From Gemmatimonadaceae bacterium (GTDB lineage: Bacteria; Gemmatimonadota; Gemmatimonadetes; Gemmatimonadales; Gemmatimonadaceae), in NCBI GenBank assembly GCA_025934775.1, contig JAICWO010000001.1, forward strand, positions 124,001 to 188,000: a stretch of DNA of 64,000 bases, written 5' to 3'. Positions 4,131 to 61,899 of this stretch are shown here, one piece after another. The translations under genes and the position numbers were made by a program. How positions within the stretch are numbered: position 1 is the stretch's first letter; each line of letters starts with the position of its first letter. The notes below the pieces were generated by a model. The model was not told the origin of the DNA and ran no database searches. It saw nothing but the letters and a program-made list of their open reading frames with translations.

Positions 4131-4241
4131 CGTCATTCCGAGCGAGCGCAGCGAGTCGAGGAACCTGGGTTCGTCGACCAATGAACCGCCACGCGCCCGG
4201 ATTCCTCGACTCCCTCGCTGCGCTCGGTCGCTCGGAATGAC
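4131..4241. repeat. REP/BIME-like inverted repeat with ATTCCGAGCGAGCGCAGCGAGTCGAGGA-type arms
   Basis: GTCATTCCGAGCGAGCGCAGCGAGTCGAGGAACC ... GGATTCCTCGACTCCCTCGCTGCGCTCGGTCGCTCGGAATGAC; near-complementary arms. Confidence 0.85.
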
Positions 4242-5124
4242 AGCCGCGTGTCTGCTCGGCTTGACGCTGCCGCTCGCGCGACCCGCCCGCGCCCAGACGT
4301 TCACCCGCGCCGATACCGCGGCGCTGCACAAAACCCTCGACGCCATCGCCGCCGCCCATCACGGGGTGCTCGGCTACTCGGTGCTCAACCTCGATACCGG
4401 CGAGCGCATGTCGCTGCGCGGCGACGAGACGTTCCCGACCGCGAGCCTGATCAAGGTCCCGATCCTCGTCACGCTCTACGATCTCGCGCAGAAAAACATG
4501 CTCTCGCTCGACGATCCGCTGACCGTGCTCAAGATCGATCAGGTGCCCGGGAGCGGCGTACTCCAGTTCATGCATCCCGGCATGTCGTTGAGCGTGCACG
4601 ATGCCGCCGCGCTGATGATCATCCTCAGCGACAACACCGCGACGAACCTGCTGCTCGACCGGATCATCATCCGCCGCGTGTGGGAGAAAATGGAAGCGCT
4701 CGGTCTGCCGCACACCAAGGTGCACTCGAAGACCTTTCTCCGAATCTCGAGCGTCGCCATGGACAGCTCGGCGAAGTACGGGCTCGGCGTGAGCACGCCG
4801 AACGAGATGGCGCACCTCTTCGCGCTGCTCGCCGGCGGGCAAGCCGTGAATCCCGCGGCGGACTCGGCCATGCTCGCCATTCTCGCGGACAACGCCGACA
4901 TGGACTCGATGCAGCGCACGATCGATGGCATGAGCGTGCCGCACAAGACCGGCGCCACCGATTCGGTGCGCACGGAATGCGCGCTGTTCCGCTTGCAATC
5001 GCGCGTCGTGGCGTGCGGATTCACGAAGGCCAATCAGGACACGCGCTGGGTGGTCGACAACGAGGCGCAAGTCTCGCTCGGAAAAATCGGCGCCGCGGTC
5101 GTCGCCGCGTGGCCGAAGAAGTAG
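4237..5124 (+). CDS. Class A beta-lactamase-like serine hydrolase (secreted)
   Basis: Signal peptide; SxxK in TASLIKVP, SDN in LSDNTATNLLL, KTG in VPHKTGAT. Start ATG lies inside the right arm of the preceding repeat. Confidence 0.8.
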   Translation: MTAACLLGLTLPLARPARAQTFTRADTAALHKTLDAIAAAHHGVLGYSVLNLDTGERMSLRGDETFPTASLIKVPILVTLYDLAQKNMLSLDDPLTVLKIDQVPGSGVLQFMHPGMSLSVHDAAALMIILSDNTATNLLLDRIIIRRVWEKMEALGLPHTKVHSKTFLRISSVAMDSSAKYGLGVSTPNEMAHLFALLAGGQAVNPAADSAMLAILADNADMDSMQRTIDGMSVPHKTGATDSVRTECALFRLQSRVVACGFTKANQDTRWVVDNEAQVSLGKIGAAVVAAWPKK

Positions 5125-5175
5125 CGCGTCGGTGGTACAGGCTATGCCCTTCCTCCGCGCAGGAGGGGACTTATC

Positions 5176-5583
5176 GTGTCGCTACGTTGCTTGCTCGTGC
5201 TCGCGCTGGTCGCGAGCCTGCCGGGTACCGCCGCCGCGCAATTCACCACTTTCATTCCGCCGCAGACCAAAGTCGCTGATTCGGTGAAGGCGGCCGTCGC
5301 GACGCAGCAGAAGGTGCAGCAGGACAGCATTGCGCAGGCGCAGCTCACGAACATGAAGACGTGGGTCGACTCGGCCGCCGGCGTGACGCCGCCGACCACG
5401 GCCGATTCCGTCGCGAACGCGATCGCCGCGACGAACAGCGCCGACACGGGCGCGTTCCGAAACGGCATGCGCGCGCCCGAGACCGCGAGCGATCTGCCGC
5501 TGCTGGTCGTGATCGGCATCGCCGCGCTCGGACTCGGGACGCTCCTGCTCGGCGGCAGCCGTGCGCCGCGCACACGTGCGTAG
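5176..5583 (+). CDS. Secreted protein with C-terminal sortase-type sorting signal (candidate sortase substrate)
   Basis: Signal peptide MSLRCLLVLALVASLPGTAAAQ; C-terminus RAPETASDLPLLVVIGIAALGLGTLLLGGSRAPRTRA (xPETA, hydrophobic helix, basic tail). Purine-rich AGGAGGGGA upstream of GTG start. Confidence 0.65.
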   Translation: MSLRCLLVLALVASLPGTAAAQFTTFIPPQTKVADSVKAAVATQQKVQQDSIAQAQLTNMKTWVDSAAGVTPPTTADSVANAIAATNSADTGAFRNGMRAPETASDLPLLVVIGIAALGLGTLLLGGSRAPRTRA

Positions 5584-6178
5584 AGCCGTCGGCCTCGCGC
5601 TCTACGTGGGCGGCGGGTTGATGCTCTCGTTCGCCGTCGGGCGGTACGGCGTGGGCGTCGTGCGCGCCGACGAGGCGCGCGCGGCATGGAACGATGCTGA
5701 AGCGCAGGAAGCTGTCGCGCTCGCGCGTTCGGTCGCGCTGCCCCGCGACCGGCGCGAGCCGCTCGTGGACGGCGCACCCGTCGCGCGCCTCGTGATCCCG
5801 AAGCTCGACTTCGACGCGATCGTGCTCGAGGGCGTGGACGGCGACGACCTGAACGCCGGCCCGGGGCACCTGCCCGGCAGCGCATTCCCCGGCGAGCCGG
5901 GCAACGCGATCATCTCCGCGCATCGCGATCGCCACTTCAATCATCTCGATGCGCTCGAGGTCGGCGACACGCTGTTCACGGAATCCGGCGCGCGGCGAAA
6001 CGCGTGGGTCGTGGTGTCGACGCGCGTGCTCGACAAGAACGCGCCGGCGCTGTTCCACATGAAGGACGCGACGCTCACGCTGACGACGTGCTGGCCGATA
6101 CGGTACCTCGGGCCGGCGCCGGATCGGTTGATCGTGACGGCGAAACCGATCGGCGGCCGGTCGACGCCGCGGGCGTAG
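5561..6178 (+). CDS. Sortase family protein (class D-like)
   Basis: N-terminal TM; PVARLVIPKLDFDAIVLEG; IISAHRDRHF (His); LTLTTCWPIRYLGPAPDRLIV (Cys..Arg). Overlaps 3' end of preceding ORF. Confidence 0.85.
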   Translation: MRRAHVRRAVGLALYVGGGLMLSFAVGRYGVGVVRADEARAAWNDAEAQEAVALARSVALPRDRREPLVDGAPVARLVIPKLDFDAIVLEGVDGDDLNAGPGHLPGSAFPGEPGNAIISAHRDRHFNHLDALEVGDTLFTESGARRNAWVVVSTRVLDKNAPALFHMKDATLTLTTCWPIRYLGPAPDRLIVTAKPIGGRSTPRA

Positions 6179-6182
6179 CGTC

Positions 6183-6252
6183 GTCTCGCTTCTCGCTTCT
6201 CGCTTCTCGCTTCTCGCTTCTCGCTTCTCGCGTCTCGAGAGCCGAGACCTGG
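6183..6252. repeat. Heptamer tandem repeat (TTCTCGC, six exact copies plus degenerate flanks)
   Basis: 6190-6231 reads TTCTCGC x6, flanked by GTCTCGC and GTCTCGA/GAGCCGA/GACCTGG in phase. Confidence 0.95.
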
Positions 6253-6270: not shown

Positions 6271-7182
6271 GTGCCCCCCATCCGCCTCCTCCCCGCCCTC
6301 GAATCCGCTGTTCGCGACCACCGGCCCGTTGTCGCGCTCGAGAGCTCGGTGCTCGCGCAGGGACTTCCGATTCCGCAGAACCGCGAAGCCGCGATTGGCA
6401 TGACGAACGCGGTCGCGCGGGCTGGCGCACTGCCGGCGATCACCGCGGTCGTGGCGGGGACGCCGGCGGTCGGGCTCACCGACGACGAGCTGGAGCGATT
6501 CCTTCGGCGTGAGGGCGTGCGCAAAGTCTCGGCGCGCGATCTTCCGGCGGCGGTGCTGAAGCGCGCGGACGGCGCGACGACCGTGGCCGCTTCAATCGCG
6601 CTCGCGTCGGCCGTCGGTATCACAGTCTTCGCGACCGGCGGCATTGGCGGCGTACACCGCGACGCTCCGTACGACGAGTCGGCGGATCTCGCCGAGCTCG
6701 CGCGCACGCCGATGATCGTGGTGTGCGCGGGCGCGAAGTCGATCCTCGATCTCCGCGCCACGTGGGAGCGGCTCGAGAGCATGGGCGTGCCGGTCGTCGG
6801 CTACCGGACCGACGAGCTGCCGGGATTTTTCTCGGCCGAAACGGGCATCAAGCTCGATTGCCGAGTGGACGACGTAGCGGAGATCGTTGGGCTGTACCGG
6901 GCTCACCGCGCGCTCGGCCGAATGCAGTCGATCGTGGTGGTGCAAGCACCGCCGGCGGAGCACGCGCTCGCGCGCGAGCGGGTCGAGTCGGCGGTGGCGC
7001 GGGCCCAAATGGATGCGCGGCGCGACGGCATTACGGGCGCCGCGGTGACCCCGTATTTGCTCGCCGCCGTAACTCGTTTGACGGACGGAAGTTCGCTCGC
7101 GGCAAACCTGGCGCTGCTGGAGCGGAACGCGGCGCTCGCGGGAGAGATTGCAACAATGTATTCCCGCGCGGAAACGCGCTAG
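6271..7182 (+). CDS. psuG: Pseudouridine-5'-phosphate glycosidase
   Basis: PVVALESSVLAQGLPIPQN, VFATGGIGGVHR, VVCAGAKSILDL, ELPGFFSAETGIKL are typical of PsuG. Confidence 0.9.
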   Translation: MPPIRLLPALESAVRDHRPVVALESSVLAQGLPIPQNREAAIGMTNAVARAGALPAITAVVAGTPAVGLTDDELERFLRREGVRKVSARDLPAAVLKRADGATTVAASIALASAVGITVFATGGIGGVHRDAPYDESADLAELARTPMIVVCAGAKSILDLRATWERLESMGVPVVGYRTDELPGFFSAETGIKLDCRVDDVAEIVGLYRAHRALGRMQSIVVVQAPPAEHALARERVESAVARAQMDARRDGITGAAVTPYLLAAVTRLTDGSSLAANLALLERNAALAGEIATMYSRAETR

Positions 7183-57769: not shown

Positions 57770-59410
57770 ATGAAGCGGTTCGTCGCGGCCTTCGTGCTCG
57801 CGCTCGCGGCGGCATGCGGCGGCGACGCGGCGCCCGACGTCGCGCCCGCGGCCATCATACTCTCCCCCGCCGCGTCGCTCGCCGTGCAGTCGGGAGCCAC
57901 GGTCCTGGTCCATGCCACGGTGACCAACAAGGCTGGCCGCGCCGTGAACGCCGCCGTCACGTGGTCCAGCAGCAGTCCCGCGATCGCCAGCGTGTCCGAC
58001 GGGAGCATCACCGGCATTCGTGTCGGGACCGCGACGATCACGGCGAGCGTCGAGGCGACTGGCGGCCCCGCGATCGCGGCATCGACTGACGTCACCGTGT
58101 CGCCCGGATCGCCGGCCGCGCTCGCGGTGAGTCGTCAGCCTAGCGGCGGGCCAATCGGAATTCCGCTCCGTCAACAGCCGGGGATCGAGGTGCACGATGC
58201 AGCCGGCAATGTCGTGACATCGTCGTCCGCCACGATCGCCGCCGCGATTCAGACCGGAGGCGGTTCGCTCAGCGGACAGACATCGATCGCAGCCGCGGCG
58301 GGGGTCGCGACGTTCAGTGGACTTGCGGTCGATGGTGCAGCGGGCGATCGGACGCTCGCGTTTACCTCTCCCGGCTTGACGCCTGTGACGTCGGCGACGT
58401 TCACGATGACGCCGCCGCCCACGCCGATCCTCGCGCTCGACTCGGCGAGGATCGACGCGCAGGTCGCGCTCGGGTCCAACGCTGCGCCGCGCACGGTGAC
58501 TGTGTCGAATTCGGGCGGCGCGCCGTTCAGCGCCGTGACACTGGACTCGGCGATCTACACGGCCGGCGAACCGACGGGCTGGCTCACGACGAACATCGCG
58601 CAGAGCGGAGCCGGGTACATCGTCACGCTCACGCCAAAGAGCGCCGCGCTCCCTCTCGGTTCGTTTCACGCCGCGGTGAATGTACTGGCTGCGGGCGCGC
58701 CCAACTCACCGCAGACCATTCACGTCACGCTCTCCGTCGTTGCGCCATACACGTTCACGTACGGCGGCTCGACCGACAAAGCACCCATCATCGATATTGG
58801 CGTGTCCGCCGCGCCCGCGATCAGCGTCGTCGACGGCGCCGGCAAGCCGGTCGCGGCAGTCGTCCCGGCGTACATCAGCCGCGCGTCGAGCATTGCCACC
58901 GTTGACGCGAGCGGCAGAGTCACCGGCGTGTCGGCTGGTCAGACGTGGGTCGTCGGCACAACGCCGCTGATGTCCGATTCGGTGTACGTGACCGTGCCGC
59001 GCTCAGCGACCGCACCGGTCGTCCGCGTGCAGCGGGGCAGCTACGTGGCGCGCGCCGGCGACACGATCACCGTCGACGTGCTGCTCGACGTGCGCGGCGC
59101 GCCGGCCGGCGCGGCGTCGATCGCGGTCGGCACACAGACGGTGCCGGAAGTGTTCACGTACTCGGCCTATTCGGTGCCGAGCGAAACGCCGCAGCCGATC
59201 GTCAACGTGACCGCGAATGGCGTGCTGCGCGTCGCCGTTGCCGCGGCAACCGGAATATCCGGCCCATTCACGATGGTGACGCTCGAGCTCCTGTCGCCCG
59301 GCCCCAACGTGGGCTGGCTCACGCTCACGCCGCTCGACGTCGCCGGAACGGACGGCAGCGATCTCACGGCGCTGTCGACGCCGACGCGGTTTCCACTGGT
59401 GTTCCGATGA
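57770..59410 (+). CDS. Secreted Big2-containing protein with C-terminal cohesin-like domain (possible lipoprotein)
   Basis: Big2 AIILSPAASLAVQSGATVLVHATVTNKAGRAVNAAVTWSSSSPAIASVS; C-terminal VRVQRGSYVARAGDTITVDVLLDVRG..GVLRVAVAAATGISGPFTMVTLELL..LTLTPLDVAGTDGSDL. Confidence 0.7.
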   Translation: MKRFVAAFVLALAAACGGDAAPDVAPAAIILSPAASLAVQSGATVLVHATVTNKAGRAVNAAVTWSSSSPAIASVSDGSITGIRVGTATITASVEATGGPAIAASTDVTVSPGSPAALAVSRQPSGGPIGIPLRQQPGIEVHDAAGNVVTSSSATIAAAIQTGGGSLSGQTSIAAAAGVATFSGLAVDGAAGDRTLAFTSPGLTPVTSATFTMTPPPTPILALDSARIDAQVALGSNAAPRTVTVSNSGGAPFSAVTLDSAIYTAGEPTGWLTTNIAQSGAGYIVTLTPKSAALPLGSFHAAVNVLAAGAPNSPQTIHVTLSVVAPYTFTYGGSTDKAPIIDIGVSAAPAISVVDGAGKPVAAVVPAYISRASSIATVDASGRVTGVSAGQTWVVGTTPLMSDSVYVTVPRSATAPVVRVQRGSYVARAGDTITVDVLLDVRGAPAGAASIAVGTQTVPEVFTYSAYSVPSETPQPIVNVTANGVLRVAVAAATGISGPFTMVTLELLSPGPNVGWLTLTPLDVAGTDGSDLTALSTPTRFPLVFR

Positions 59411-61899
59411 TGAGCCGCGTGACCGCCCGTCATTCCACGCGACTGGCTCGCGCCGCGCTCGGCGCCGCCGTGCTGCTGGCGACGGCACGGCGCTTGGTTG
59501 GGGCGCAGGGCGTGCACGAGGATCCGCGCGGCCGCGAGGAATGGTATTGGTCGTCGCTGACGTACCCGTTCGCTGACCGACCGTACGCGCAGCTGCGCGC
59601 CGTGCACATGCGCGCCGCGCAGATTCGGGCGAGTGCCGCACGCACGGTTTCGCCGGCCGCGGCGGAGCTCACGAACGTGTGGCGGCCGCTCGGACCGTTC
59701 GGCGTCTTCGGCGCGGACAACGGCTTCTTCACGTCCGGTCCGCAGCTCGACGCCGGCCGCGTCACCGGCATCGCGCCCGACGGGCGGGGGAACGTCTTCC
59801 TTGCCACCGCGTCTGGGGGCGTCTGGCGATCGAGCACGCTCGGCACCACCTGGACCGCGGCGACCGACGATCAATGTTCTCTAAACATCGGCGCGATCGC
59901 CATCGACCCGGCCGCGCCCAGCGTCCTGTACGCCGGCGCGGGCGAGTACAACACGACCAGCATCGGATGCGGCGTGCTGCGGTCGACCGACGGCGGCGTC
60001 ACGTGGAGCGCCGTCGGCGCGAACACCCTGCTCGCGGGCAGCACCGACGCGGCATTCGCGCACATCCTGATCGATCGCTCCACGGTCGGCGTGCCCTCGA
60101 CGACCACGCTCCTTGCCGCGACGAATGCCGCGCTCTTCCGCTCCACGGACGGCGGCGAGACCTGGTCGTTCGTCATTACGGGCGCGGTGTCGAGCATCGT
60201 GCAGCACCCCACGAATGCGAGCGTGATGTTCGCCGGCGACGCCGATGGCTTCACGCGCGACAAGCGCGGCGTGTATCGCTCCGCCGATCACGGCGCGACG
60301 TGGGTGCAGCTTCCCGCGCTTCCGAACATCGATCCGGGGCGGATGGGGCGGATCGAGCTGGCGATGTCGCCGGCGTCGCCCGACGTGCTGTACGCGCTCG
60401 TCGCCGATCGCTCGACCGGGCACGCGCTCGGATTGTTTCGCTGGGACGATCCAGCCGGAGTCTGGACGCAGCTCGGCGCGAATGGTCTGGTCGAGAGCAA
60501 CGTCCGAACGGACTTCGGGGCCCAGGGCTTTTACGATCTCATATTGAGCGCCGATCCGCGCGACGCGAATCGGATCTACCTTGCCGGCGTGCGCGCGTTG
60601 CGCTCCACGGATGGCGGGGCCAACTTCGCGCCCGTGGCCACCGAGATCCACAGCGATTGGCACGCGCTCGTCTTCGATCCGGTGAATCCGGACGTGGTAT
60701 ACGCCGGCACCGACGGCGGCGTGTTCATCTCGTACGATCGCGGCGACTCCTGGACGAGCCGGAATCAGGGATTACAGATCACGCAATACTATCCTGGAAT
60801 CTCCATGAATCCGTCCGGCAGCGTGGTGCTCGGCGGATCACAGGACAACGGTACGTCGCGATTCTCGGGATCGCTGTTCTGGGACGGCATCGATGGCGGC
60901 GACGGCGGCGCCACGGCGATCGATCCACGCGATCCGAGCGTGTACTGGACGGAGACGCAGTGGGACACGCGGAACGGCGGCGCTGGAATTGTGTGGCACG
61001 ACGCGACCGACGCGGCGCTGCGACGCACCGGCCTCGTCGCAAGTGATCGCGCGCCGTTCATCCCGCCGTTCGTGATGGATCCTGTGACGCCGGCGACGTT
61101 GTATTTCGGAACGGATCGGCTGTATCGCACGACCGACGCCGGCGGCACGTGGACCCCGATCAGCGGCGATCTGTCGAAGGGCGCCGGCACGATCGCGACG
61201 ATCGCAGTCGCTCCCACGGCGACGAGCACGATCTACGTGGGCACGAGCGACGGCAACGTGCAGGTCTCGCGCGATACGGGCGCGACGTTCACGCTGGCGA
61301 CGGCCGGGCTGCCGAATCGTGCCGTGTCCAAGATCGTGATCGCACCGGACAGCGCCTCGCATGCGCTCGTCGTCTTCTCCGGCTTCGGGACGGGCCACGT
61401 GTTCGAGACGCGCGACGCCGGTGCGTCATGGCACGACATCACCGGCAGCCTGCCCGACGCGCCGGCCTACTCGATCGCGTTCGTCGGGCCGACGCTGGTC
61501 GTCGGGACGGAGATCGGCGTCTTCCAGAGCGCCGACGACGGCGCGACGTGGGCCGCGGGTCCGCCGGGCATGCCGAACGCTCCGGTGCGAGACCTGATTT
61601 ATCAGTCGTCGAGCCGCCTGCTCATTGCCGCGACGTACGGTCGCGGCATGTGGCAGTACACGGTCGGCGGTGTGCCGAGCGTGTTGCGCGGCGACGCGAA
61701 CGGCGATGGGAAGATCGATGCGTTCGATGCGCTGCTCATCGAACAGACGCTCGTCTCGAGCGCGCCGCAGACCGCGTCGGTCTTTCCGGGCGGCGACGCG
61801 AACTGCGACGGGAAGCTCGACGCGGCGGACCTCGTGCTGGTCTTGCGCGCCGCGGTCGGTCTTCCCACCGCAGGCGCGTGCGTGGGTACGAAGCGATAG
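59407..61899 (+). CDS. Secreted BNR/VPS10-like beta-propeller protein with C-terminal type I dockerin
   Basis: Repeated RSTDGGxTW motifs; C-terminal RGDANGDGKIDAFDALLIEQTL and GGDANCDGKLDAADLVLVLRAAVG. Confidence 0.9.
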   Translation: MMSRVTARHSTRLARAALGAAVLLATARRLVGAQGVHEDPRGREEWYWSSLTYPFADRPYAQLRAVHMRAAQIRASAARTVSPAAAELTNVWRPLGPFGVFGADNGFFTSGPQLDAGRVTGIAPDGRGNVFLATASGGVWRSSTLGTTWTAATDDQCSLNIGAIAIDPAAPSVLYAGAGEYNTTSIGCGVLRSTDGGVTWSAVGANTLLAGSTDAAFAHILIDRSTVGVPSTTTLLAATNAALFRSTDGGETWSFVITGAVSSIVQHPTNASVMFAGDADGFTRDKRGVYRSADHGATWVQLPALPNIDPGRMGRIELAMSPASPDVLYALVADRSTGHALGLFRWDDPAGVWTQLGANGLVESNVRTDFGAQGFYDLILSADPRDANRIYLAGVRALRSTDGGANFAPVATEIHSDWHALVFDPVNPDVVYAGTDGGVFISYDRGDSWTSRNQGLQITQYYPGISMNPSGSVVLGGSQDNGTSRFSGSLFWDGIDGGDGGATAIDPRDPSVYWTETQWDTRNGGAGIVWHDATDAALRRTGLVASDRAPFIPPFVMDPVTPATLYFGTDRLYRTTDAGGTWTPISGDLSKGAGTIATIAVAPTATSTIYVGTSDGNVQVSRDTGATFTLATAGLPNRAVSKIVIAPDSASHALVVFSGFGTGHVFETRDAGASWHDITGSLPDAPAYSIAFVGPTLVVGTEIGVFQSADDGATWAAGPPGMPNAPVRDLIYQSSSRLLIAATYGRGMWQYTVGGVPSVLRGDANGDGKIDAFDALLIEQTLVSSAPQTASVFPGGDANCDGKLDAADLVLVLRAAVGLPTAGACVGTKR

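What the first reader, a model, noticed from the sequence alone, without database searches (positions are those of the whole stretch)
5176..6178. Minimal sortase plus dedicated substrate pair in a probable diderm
A secreted 135-aa protein ends RAPETASDLPLLVVIGIAALGLGTLLLGGSRAPRTRA, an LPXTG-like motif (APETA), hydrophobic span and basic tail. The next, overlapping gene encodes a class D-like sortase (HRD, TLTTCW..R). Sortases are classically Gram-positive; single sortase-substrate pairs in diderms are known but poorly understood. Substrate mature region is Ser/Ala/Gln-rich and lacks a recognised domain.
Basis: partly seen in the sequence, partly recalled or inferred. Interest (0 to 1): 0.7.

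Follow-up and report, generated by a model that had tools for sequence, protein, structure and literature searches.

The report
Sortase-substrate pair in an outer-membrane bacterium
This bacterium with an outer membrane (family Gemmatimonadaceae) carries a two-gene cassette, an enzyme that should cut and re-attach proteins (a sortase) plus one tiny exported protein bearing its tag, and the two come, go and decay together across relatives, so they very probably work as a dedicated pair.

Summary
Window 5176-5583 encodes a secreted 135-aa protein ending APETA, hydrophobic span, basic tail; overlapping 5576-6178 encodes a sortase closest to class D (SrtD). The genome is Gemmatimonadaceae, has outer-membrane Omp85 proteins, and holds exactly one sortase and one such tail. 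Across 180 family genomes, sortase and tail signal are both present in 26 and both absent in 150; the four exceptions are two contig breaks, one incomplete genome and one decayed pair. In that pair (G315) the sortase lost its catalytic His and Cys and the substrate lost the motif's Pro and Thr and much of its length. The pair sits between a beta-lactamase and a psuG gene; two sortase-less relatives lack exactly that insert. Some genera carry a second, unlinked substrate that shares only the C-terminal signal, consensus APxTA[ST]xLP. Most likely mechanism: cleavage between Thr and Ala and transfer to an amine, probably meso-diaminopimelate of peptidoglycan, tethering a short helical peptide in the periplasm. 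The pairing is well supported; the acceptor and the peptide's role are inferred. Verdict: new variant of a known kind (dedicated Gram-negative sortase system, class-D-like).

The parts
5161..5168 (+). Shine-Dalgarno-like AGGAGGGG of the substrate gene
   Evidence: sequence
5176..5583 (+). sortase substrate gene (135 aa, GTG start)
   Evidence: homologous pairs
5176..5238 (+). signal peptide (aa 1-21, ...GTAAA|QFTTF)
   Evidence: sequence; A19, A21 and Q22 invariant in A2
5239..5484 (+). predicted mature peptide, 82 aa: QFTTFIPP N-terminus, predicted helix aa 31-67 with conserved MKxWVDSAAG, disordered linker
   Evidence: (low-confidence model)
5473..5487 (+). sorting motif APETA (aa 100-104; predicted cut between Thr103 and Ala104)
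5494..5553 (+). C-terminal hydrophobic span (aa 107-126), followed by basic tail SRAPRTRA
   Evidence: sequence; helix in model
5576..6178 (+). class-D-like sortase gene (200 aa; N-terminal TM; alternative GTG start 5561)
5921..5923 (+). catalytic His (SAHRDRHF)
   Evidence: invariant in A1; position
6089..6091 (+). catalytic Cys (LTLTTCW)
   Evidence: invariant in A1; position
6125..6127 (+). catalytic Arg (APDR), by alignment with 2ln7
4237..5124 (+). flanking gene: class A beta-lactamase-like enzyme (PF13354), also present in sortase-less relatives, so a neighbour rather than part of the system
6274..7182 (+). flanking gene: pseudouridine-5'-phosphate glycosidase-like (PF04227); marks the other edge of the insertion

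Best explanation
This is a two-gene dedicated sortase system. The small protein is exported by its signal peptide and held in the inner membrane by its C-terminal hydrophobic span. The neighbouring class-D-like sortase, itself anchored by an N-terminal TM, recognises APxTA[ST]xLP, cuts between Thr and Ala by its Cys/His/Arg site, and transfers the new C-terminal Thr to an amine in the periplasm. By analogy with class D SrtC of Bacillus anthracis the acceptor is most likely meso-diaminopimelate of lipid II/peptidoglycan. The product would be an ~82-residue, mostly helical peptide covalently fixed at its C-terminus to the thin wall, with its conserved QFTxxxxPP N-terminus and MKxWVDSAAG helix free to contact another envelope component. 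Shown by comparative evidence: the two genes behave as a functional unit and the C-terminal signal is the shared element that tracks the sortase. Inferred: the exact cut site, the acceptor, and the role of the anchored peptide.
For: One sortase and one signal in the genome. Co-occurrence over 180 family genomes: 26 both, 150 neither, 2 and 2 exceptions; Fisher P 9e-27, not corrected for phylogeny. Only 21 of 399 phylum genomes have any sortase, one each, the same 21 with either profile. Three kinds of mature region (helix type, CxC type, G120 type) share only the C-terminal signal; profile comparison of the first two aligns just the last 40 columns. G315: sortase His->Glu and Cys->Ser, substrate shrunk to 99 aa with the motif's Pro and Thr lost, no other convincing signal in that genome, and a branch of 0.87 against 0.16 for its sister. 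The cassette is absent between bla and psuG in G025 and G040. NCBIfam best matches of the sortase are class D and LPxTATN-specific SrtD, while the tails independently match the LPxTATN sorting signal in 14 of 20 members. Foldseek top hits are SrtD 4d70 and 2ln7. MurE has the DNPR motif of mDAP-type enzymes. B. anthracis class D SrtC cuts LPNTA between Thr and Ala and uses mDAP (PMC3297441). No exosortase in the genome.
Against: No biochemical data. The sortase is below the NCBIfam cut-offs for class D (102.9 vs 165 bits) and SrtD (102.8 vs 140). Position 1 of the motif is Ala, not Leu. The substrate model is of low confidence (pLDDT 61). The acceptor has no direct evidence. In G033 the adjacent substrate has lost its signal, so the mature protein may have a role without anchoring.
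Confidence: 0.6

Rival explanations
1. The sortase processes the substrate but the product is not attached to peptidoglycan: Thr is hydrolysed or transferred to another periplasmic or outer-membrane amine, releasing the peptide from the inner membrane as a soluble or surface-delivered factor.
For: No direct evidence on the acceptor. The CxC-type substrate contains a second hydrophobic stretch (GGGLFAGLIAAV), odd for a simple wall anchor. In G033 the adjacent substrate has lost its anchor and would be soluble.
Against: Sortases with this fold and triad are as a rule transpeptidases; the nearest characterised class D enzyme attaches to mDAP, and MurE here carries the mDAP motif.
Confidence: 0.25
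2. The sortase polymerises the substrate into a fibre (pilin-like), joining Thr103 to a Lys of the next subunit, such as the Lys of MKxWVDS.
For: Some substrates have one prominent Lys in the conserved helix motif.
Against: That Lys is Arg in L011 and L018 and the motif is absent in L024-type (g23) and g19 substrates; no pilin domain or second sortase; class C models score far lower than class D.
Confidence: 0.06
3. The tail is an ordinary tail anchor and adjacency to a sortase is incidental; or the tail is a PEP-CTERM-type signal for an exosortase.
For: The hydrophobic span resembles PEP-CTERM tails; 1 of 20 members gives a weak PEP-CTERM match.
Against: Near-perfect co-occurrence with the sortase, co-decay in G315, same signal on unlinked substrates only in sortase lineages, no exosortase.
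Confidence: 0.04
4. Housekeeping sortase with many substrates that the signal model misses.
For: The signal search is tuned to APxTA-type tails.
Against: Even with a threshold of E = 10 the next match in the genome is at E = 0.3 and covers only 17 of 37 positions in a 570-aa frame. The six-frame scan of the 64-kb window found only this tail.
Confidence: 0.05

Closest known systems
Class D sortase SrtC/SrtD of Bacillus anthracis with BasH and BasI (LPNTA)
   Same: Closest solved relative by sequence (2ln7) and second by fold; motif xPxTA; Thr-Ala cut; few substrates; mDAP wall.
   Different: Monoderm spore former; Leu at motif position 1; substrates unrelated; the sortase here scores below NCBIfam class D cut-offs.
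NCBIfam pair NF058671 (SrtD, LPxTATN-specific) and NF058670 (LPxTATN sorting signal)
   Same: The sortase and the tails independently find the two halves of this curated pair as best or joint-best model.
   Different: The window's sortase does not reach the curated cut-off and its own tail is not among the matches listed for NF058670; Ala-Pro replaces Leu-Pro.
Class GN (marine proteobacterial) dedicated sortase TIGR03784 with adjacent single target protein
   Same: Dedicated sortase with one adjacent LPXTG-type target in a Gram-negative genome (PMC3237569).
   Different: Sortase scores 90.9 against a cut-off of 158 and class D scores higher. The known target has inter-alpha-trypsin-inhibitor/vault homology; this one is an 82-residue peptide with no recognised domain.
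Clostridium perfringens SrtD (CpSrtD)
   Same: Best Foldseek hit; sortase in one operon with its putative anchored protein (PMC4498605).
   Different: LPQTGS motif; Gram-positive.
Rhombosortase/GlyGly-CTERM and exosortase/PEP-CTERM
   Same: Tripartite C-terminal signal; single-target rhombosortase genomes tend to place target and enzyme side by side (PMC3237569).
   Different: Unrelated enzymes; no exosortase in this genome.

Membership tests
Sortase superfamily (PF04203, TIGR01076) | Profile match above curated cut-off | tested here: met
   PF04203 89.8 vs 26.6 bits; TIGR01076 65.3 vs 39.35
Sortase superfamily (PF04203, TIGR01076) | Catalytic His, Cys, Arg | tested here: met
   Invariant in 11 homologues; His and Cys lost only in the decayed G315 copy
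Sortase superfamily (PF04203, TIGR01076) | Transpeptidase activity | not testable with these tools
   needs purified enzyme
Class D sortase (NF033746 / NF058671) | Score above class cut-off | tested here: not met
   102.9 vs 165 and 102.8 vs 140 bits; best-scoring class all the same. Hence 'class-D-like', not filed as class D.
Class D sortase (NF033746 / NF058671) | Nearest fold and sequence neighbours are SrtD | tested here: met
   4d70 and 2ln7 top Foldseek hits; 2ln7 top sequence hit
Class D sortase (NF033746 / NF058671) | Substrate motif LPNTA-type | tested here: inconclusive
   APxTA[ST]: P, T and mostly A kept, Leu replaced by Ala; distant G120 pair has LPSTAS
Class GN dedicated sortase (TIGR03784) | Score above cut-off | tested here: not met
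   90.9 vs 158.25 bits
Class GN dedicated sortase (TIGR03784) | Diderm host, single adjacent substrate | tested here: met
LPXTG-type cell wall sorting signal (PF00746, TIGR01167, NF058670) | Motif, TM and basic tail at the C-terminus of a signal-peptide protein | tested here: met
LPXTG-type cell wall sorting signal (PF00746, TIGR01167, NF058670) | Profile score above cut-off | tested here: inconclusive
   window tail 14.1 vs 15.9 bits for TIGR01167; distant G120 substrate 21.6 vs 20 for PF00746
PEP-CTERM / exosortase | Exosortase in the genome | tested here: not met
   PF09721 none

The most novel reading that the evidence does not exclude
A diderm-specific sortase subclass (APxTA[ST]xLP signal) whose job is to rivet a short helical peptide by its C-terminus to peptidoglycan, with the free conserved N-terminus gripping an outer-membrane partner: a sortase-made counterpart of Braun-lipoprotein-type wall-to-outer-membrane tethering.
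Probability: 0.15. Interest if true: 0.8.

Novelty: new variant of a known kind. Interest (0 to 1): 0.52.

Why it matters
What sortases do in bacteria with an outer membrane is poorly tested. This is a minimal system: one enzyme, one tiny substrate, with natural absence in close relatives and a natural dead copy (G315) already supplied by evolution. It gives a precise motif, cut site and residues to test. No paper found in the searched open-access library that mentions both sortases and Gemmatimonad-type names describes such a system.

Tried and rejected
Exosortase/PEP-CTERM reading: rejected, no exosortase. Housekeeping sortase with many targets: no second signal found in this genome. A functional tie to the neighbouring beta-lactamase: it is also present in sortase-less relatives and missing in g12, which keeps the sortase, so it is only a neighbour. 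LptD Pfam search for an LPS marker was negative, so the diderm claim rests on Omp85 and on the family. Substrate fold: helix plus disorder, too weak for a fold search. Domain searches on the substrate gave only sub-threshold noise. Searches of the literature for Gemmatimonad or diderm sortases found nothing on point.

Full report
What is there. The window lies in a 4.88-Mb, 99% complete genome whose close relatives are Gemmatimonadaceae metagenome assemblies. At 5176-5583 a GTG-started gene behind a strong Shine-Dalgarno sequence encodes a 135-aa protein: signal peptide, 82-residue mature part, APETA, hydrophobic span and basic tail. The sortase gene overlaps it by 8 nt if it starts at GTG 5576. 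The sortase passes PF04203 and TIGR01076 and carries the His, Cys and Arg expected.

More than chance. Of 419 ORF tails in the window, only this one fits a permissive sorting-signal definition, and shuffled tails give about 0.08 expected. Homologous pairs from public genomes and further ones in held genomes keep the order substrate-sortase. The tail consensus is G-x-x-A-P-x-T-A-[ST]-x-L-P then a hydrophobic span and Arg-rich end, with Pro, Thr, the second Pro and three Gly invariant in 20 tails. Pairwise dN/dS in the genus is about 0.16-0.36 for the sortase and 0.26-0.66 for the substrate, excluding the decayed copy.

The two genes are one unit. In 399 Gemmatimonadota genomes only 21 have any sortase, always one, and the same 21 are found with the general Pfam model and with this family's profile. 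In all 180 held genomes of the family, sortase and signal are both present in 26 and both absent in 150, with two sortase-only and two signal-only genomes. These exceptions are explicable. G332 has a 42-aa sortase fragment at a contig start, and the G403 signal lies 47 nt from the contig end where the sortase would follow. G418 is 81% complete. G315 is a decayed pair. Caveat: some rows of the search profiles came from these same genomes, and the Fisher P is not corrected for shared ancestry.

Natural experiments. In two sortase-less relatives, G025 and G040, the genes that flank the pair here (beta-lactamase, then psuG) sit about 25-40 bp apart by alignment ends, so the absence is a clean one. 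In G315 (same genus) the sortase has Glu for the catalytic His and Ser for the Cys, and the adjacent substrate is reduced to 99 aa with KAPTAAAASDLP in place of RAPETASDLP, so Pro and the scissile Thr are gone from their places. The next-best signal in that genome is at E = 0.275, and its sortase branch is five times that of its sister. In G033 the adjacent substrate has lost motif and span by what looks like an in-frame deletion, while the sortase is intact; that genome keeps a second, unlinked substrate. This is a single assembly, so an assembly error is not excluded.

The signal, not the mature part, is the shared element. Genera g12 and g23 have a second, unlinked substrate of another type: CxC motif, a hydrophobic stretch, a Pro/Ala-rich linker, then APKTAT or PPKTAT, span and Arg-rich tail. 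Genus g19 has a related type beside the sortase instead of the window's type. Profile comparison of the two types aligns only the last 40 columns. A distant member of the class (G120) has a third type with LPSTAS, which passes the PF00746 LPXTG anchor cut-off. The unlinked signals were not in the profile that found them.

Which kind of sortase. Best NCBIfam models are class D and the LPxTATN-specific SrtD, both below cut-off. Independently, 14 of 20 tails match the LPxTATN sorting signal, the partner model of that SrtD. The model's best fold matches are SrtD of C. perfringens and B. anthracis. So it is class-D-like; it is not the known Gram-negative class GN.

Mechanism. Supported by comparison: a functional pair, recognition through the C-terminal signal, and loss of the signal together with loss of the catalytic residues. 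From established class D biochemistry: cut between Thr and Ala, acceptor mDAP in a bacillus (PMC3297441). Here MurE carries DNPR, the mDAP-type motif, and Omp85 proteins indicate an outer membrane, so the same acceptor should be available in the periplasm. Inferred: the anchored product is a short peptide with a long helix (low-confidence model) whose conserved N-terminus and MKxWVDSAAG segment suggest a binding partner. A Lys needed for polymerisation is not conserved, which argues against a pilus.

Place among known things. Dedicated single-target sortases next to their targets are known in Gram-negatives (TIGR03784; PMC3237569) and class D enzymes are known in bacilli and clostridia. What is new is the combination: a class-D-like enzyme, an APxTA[ST]xLP signal and an 82-residue substrate, as a cassette kept or lost as a unit in one diderm family. 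No paper found in the searched library describes it.

Noticed in passing
window 6184-6237: Tandem repeat of the heptamer TCTCGCT, 7.7 copies, between the sortase stop and psuG.
   Followed up: no
L066 3217-3780 (+), L065 4163-4714 (-), L064, L067: Second, unlinked sortase substrate type: CxC motif plus internal hydrophobic stretch plus APKTAT/PPKTAT tail; in G033 and G200 it lies near a SET-domain gene and an ABC transporter.
   Followed up: partly
L069/L026 (G315): Sortase with both catalytic His and Cys replaced but the frame still open: dead or repurposed enzyme.
   Followed up: partly
L068/L032 (G120): Distant pair whose substrate has an unrelated N-terminal region (GTGRVLHRSGETLIVDVKEG...), a proline-rich stalk and LPSTAS; passes the PF00746 cut-off.
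   Followed up: partly
window 58945-61899: 984-aa ORF with sortilin/BNR repeats and a C-terminal dockerin type I match.
   Followed up: no
window 4237-5124: Class A beta-lactamase-like enzyme (PF13354) with SxxK, SDN and KTG motifs, conserved across much of the family beside kynureninase and psuG.
   Followed up: partly
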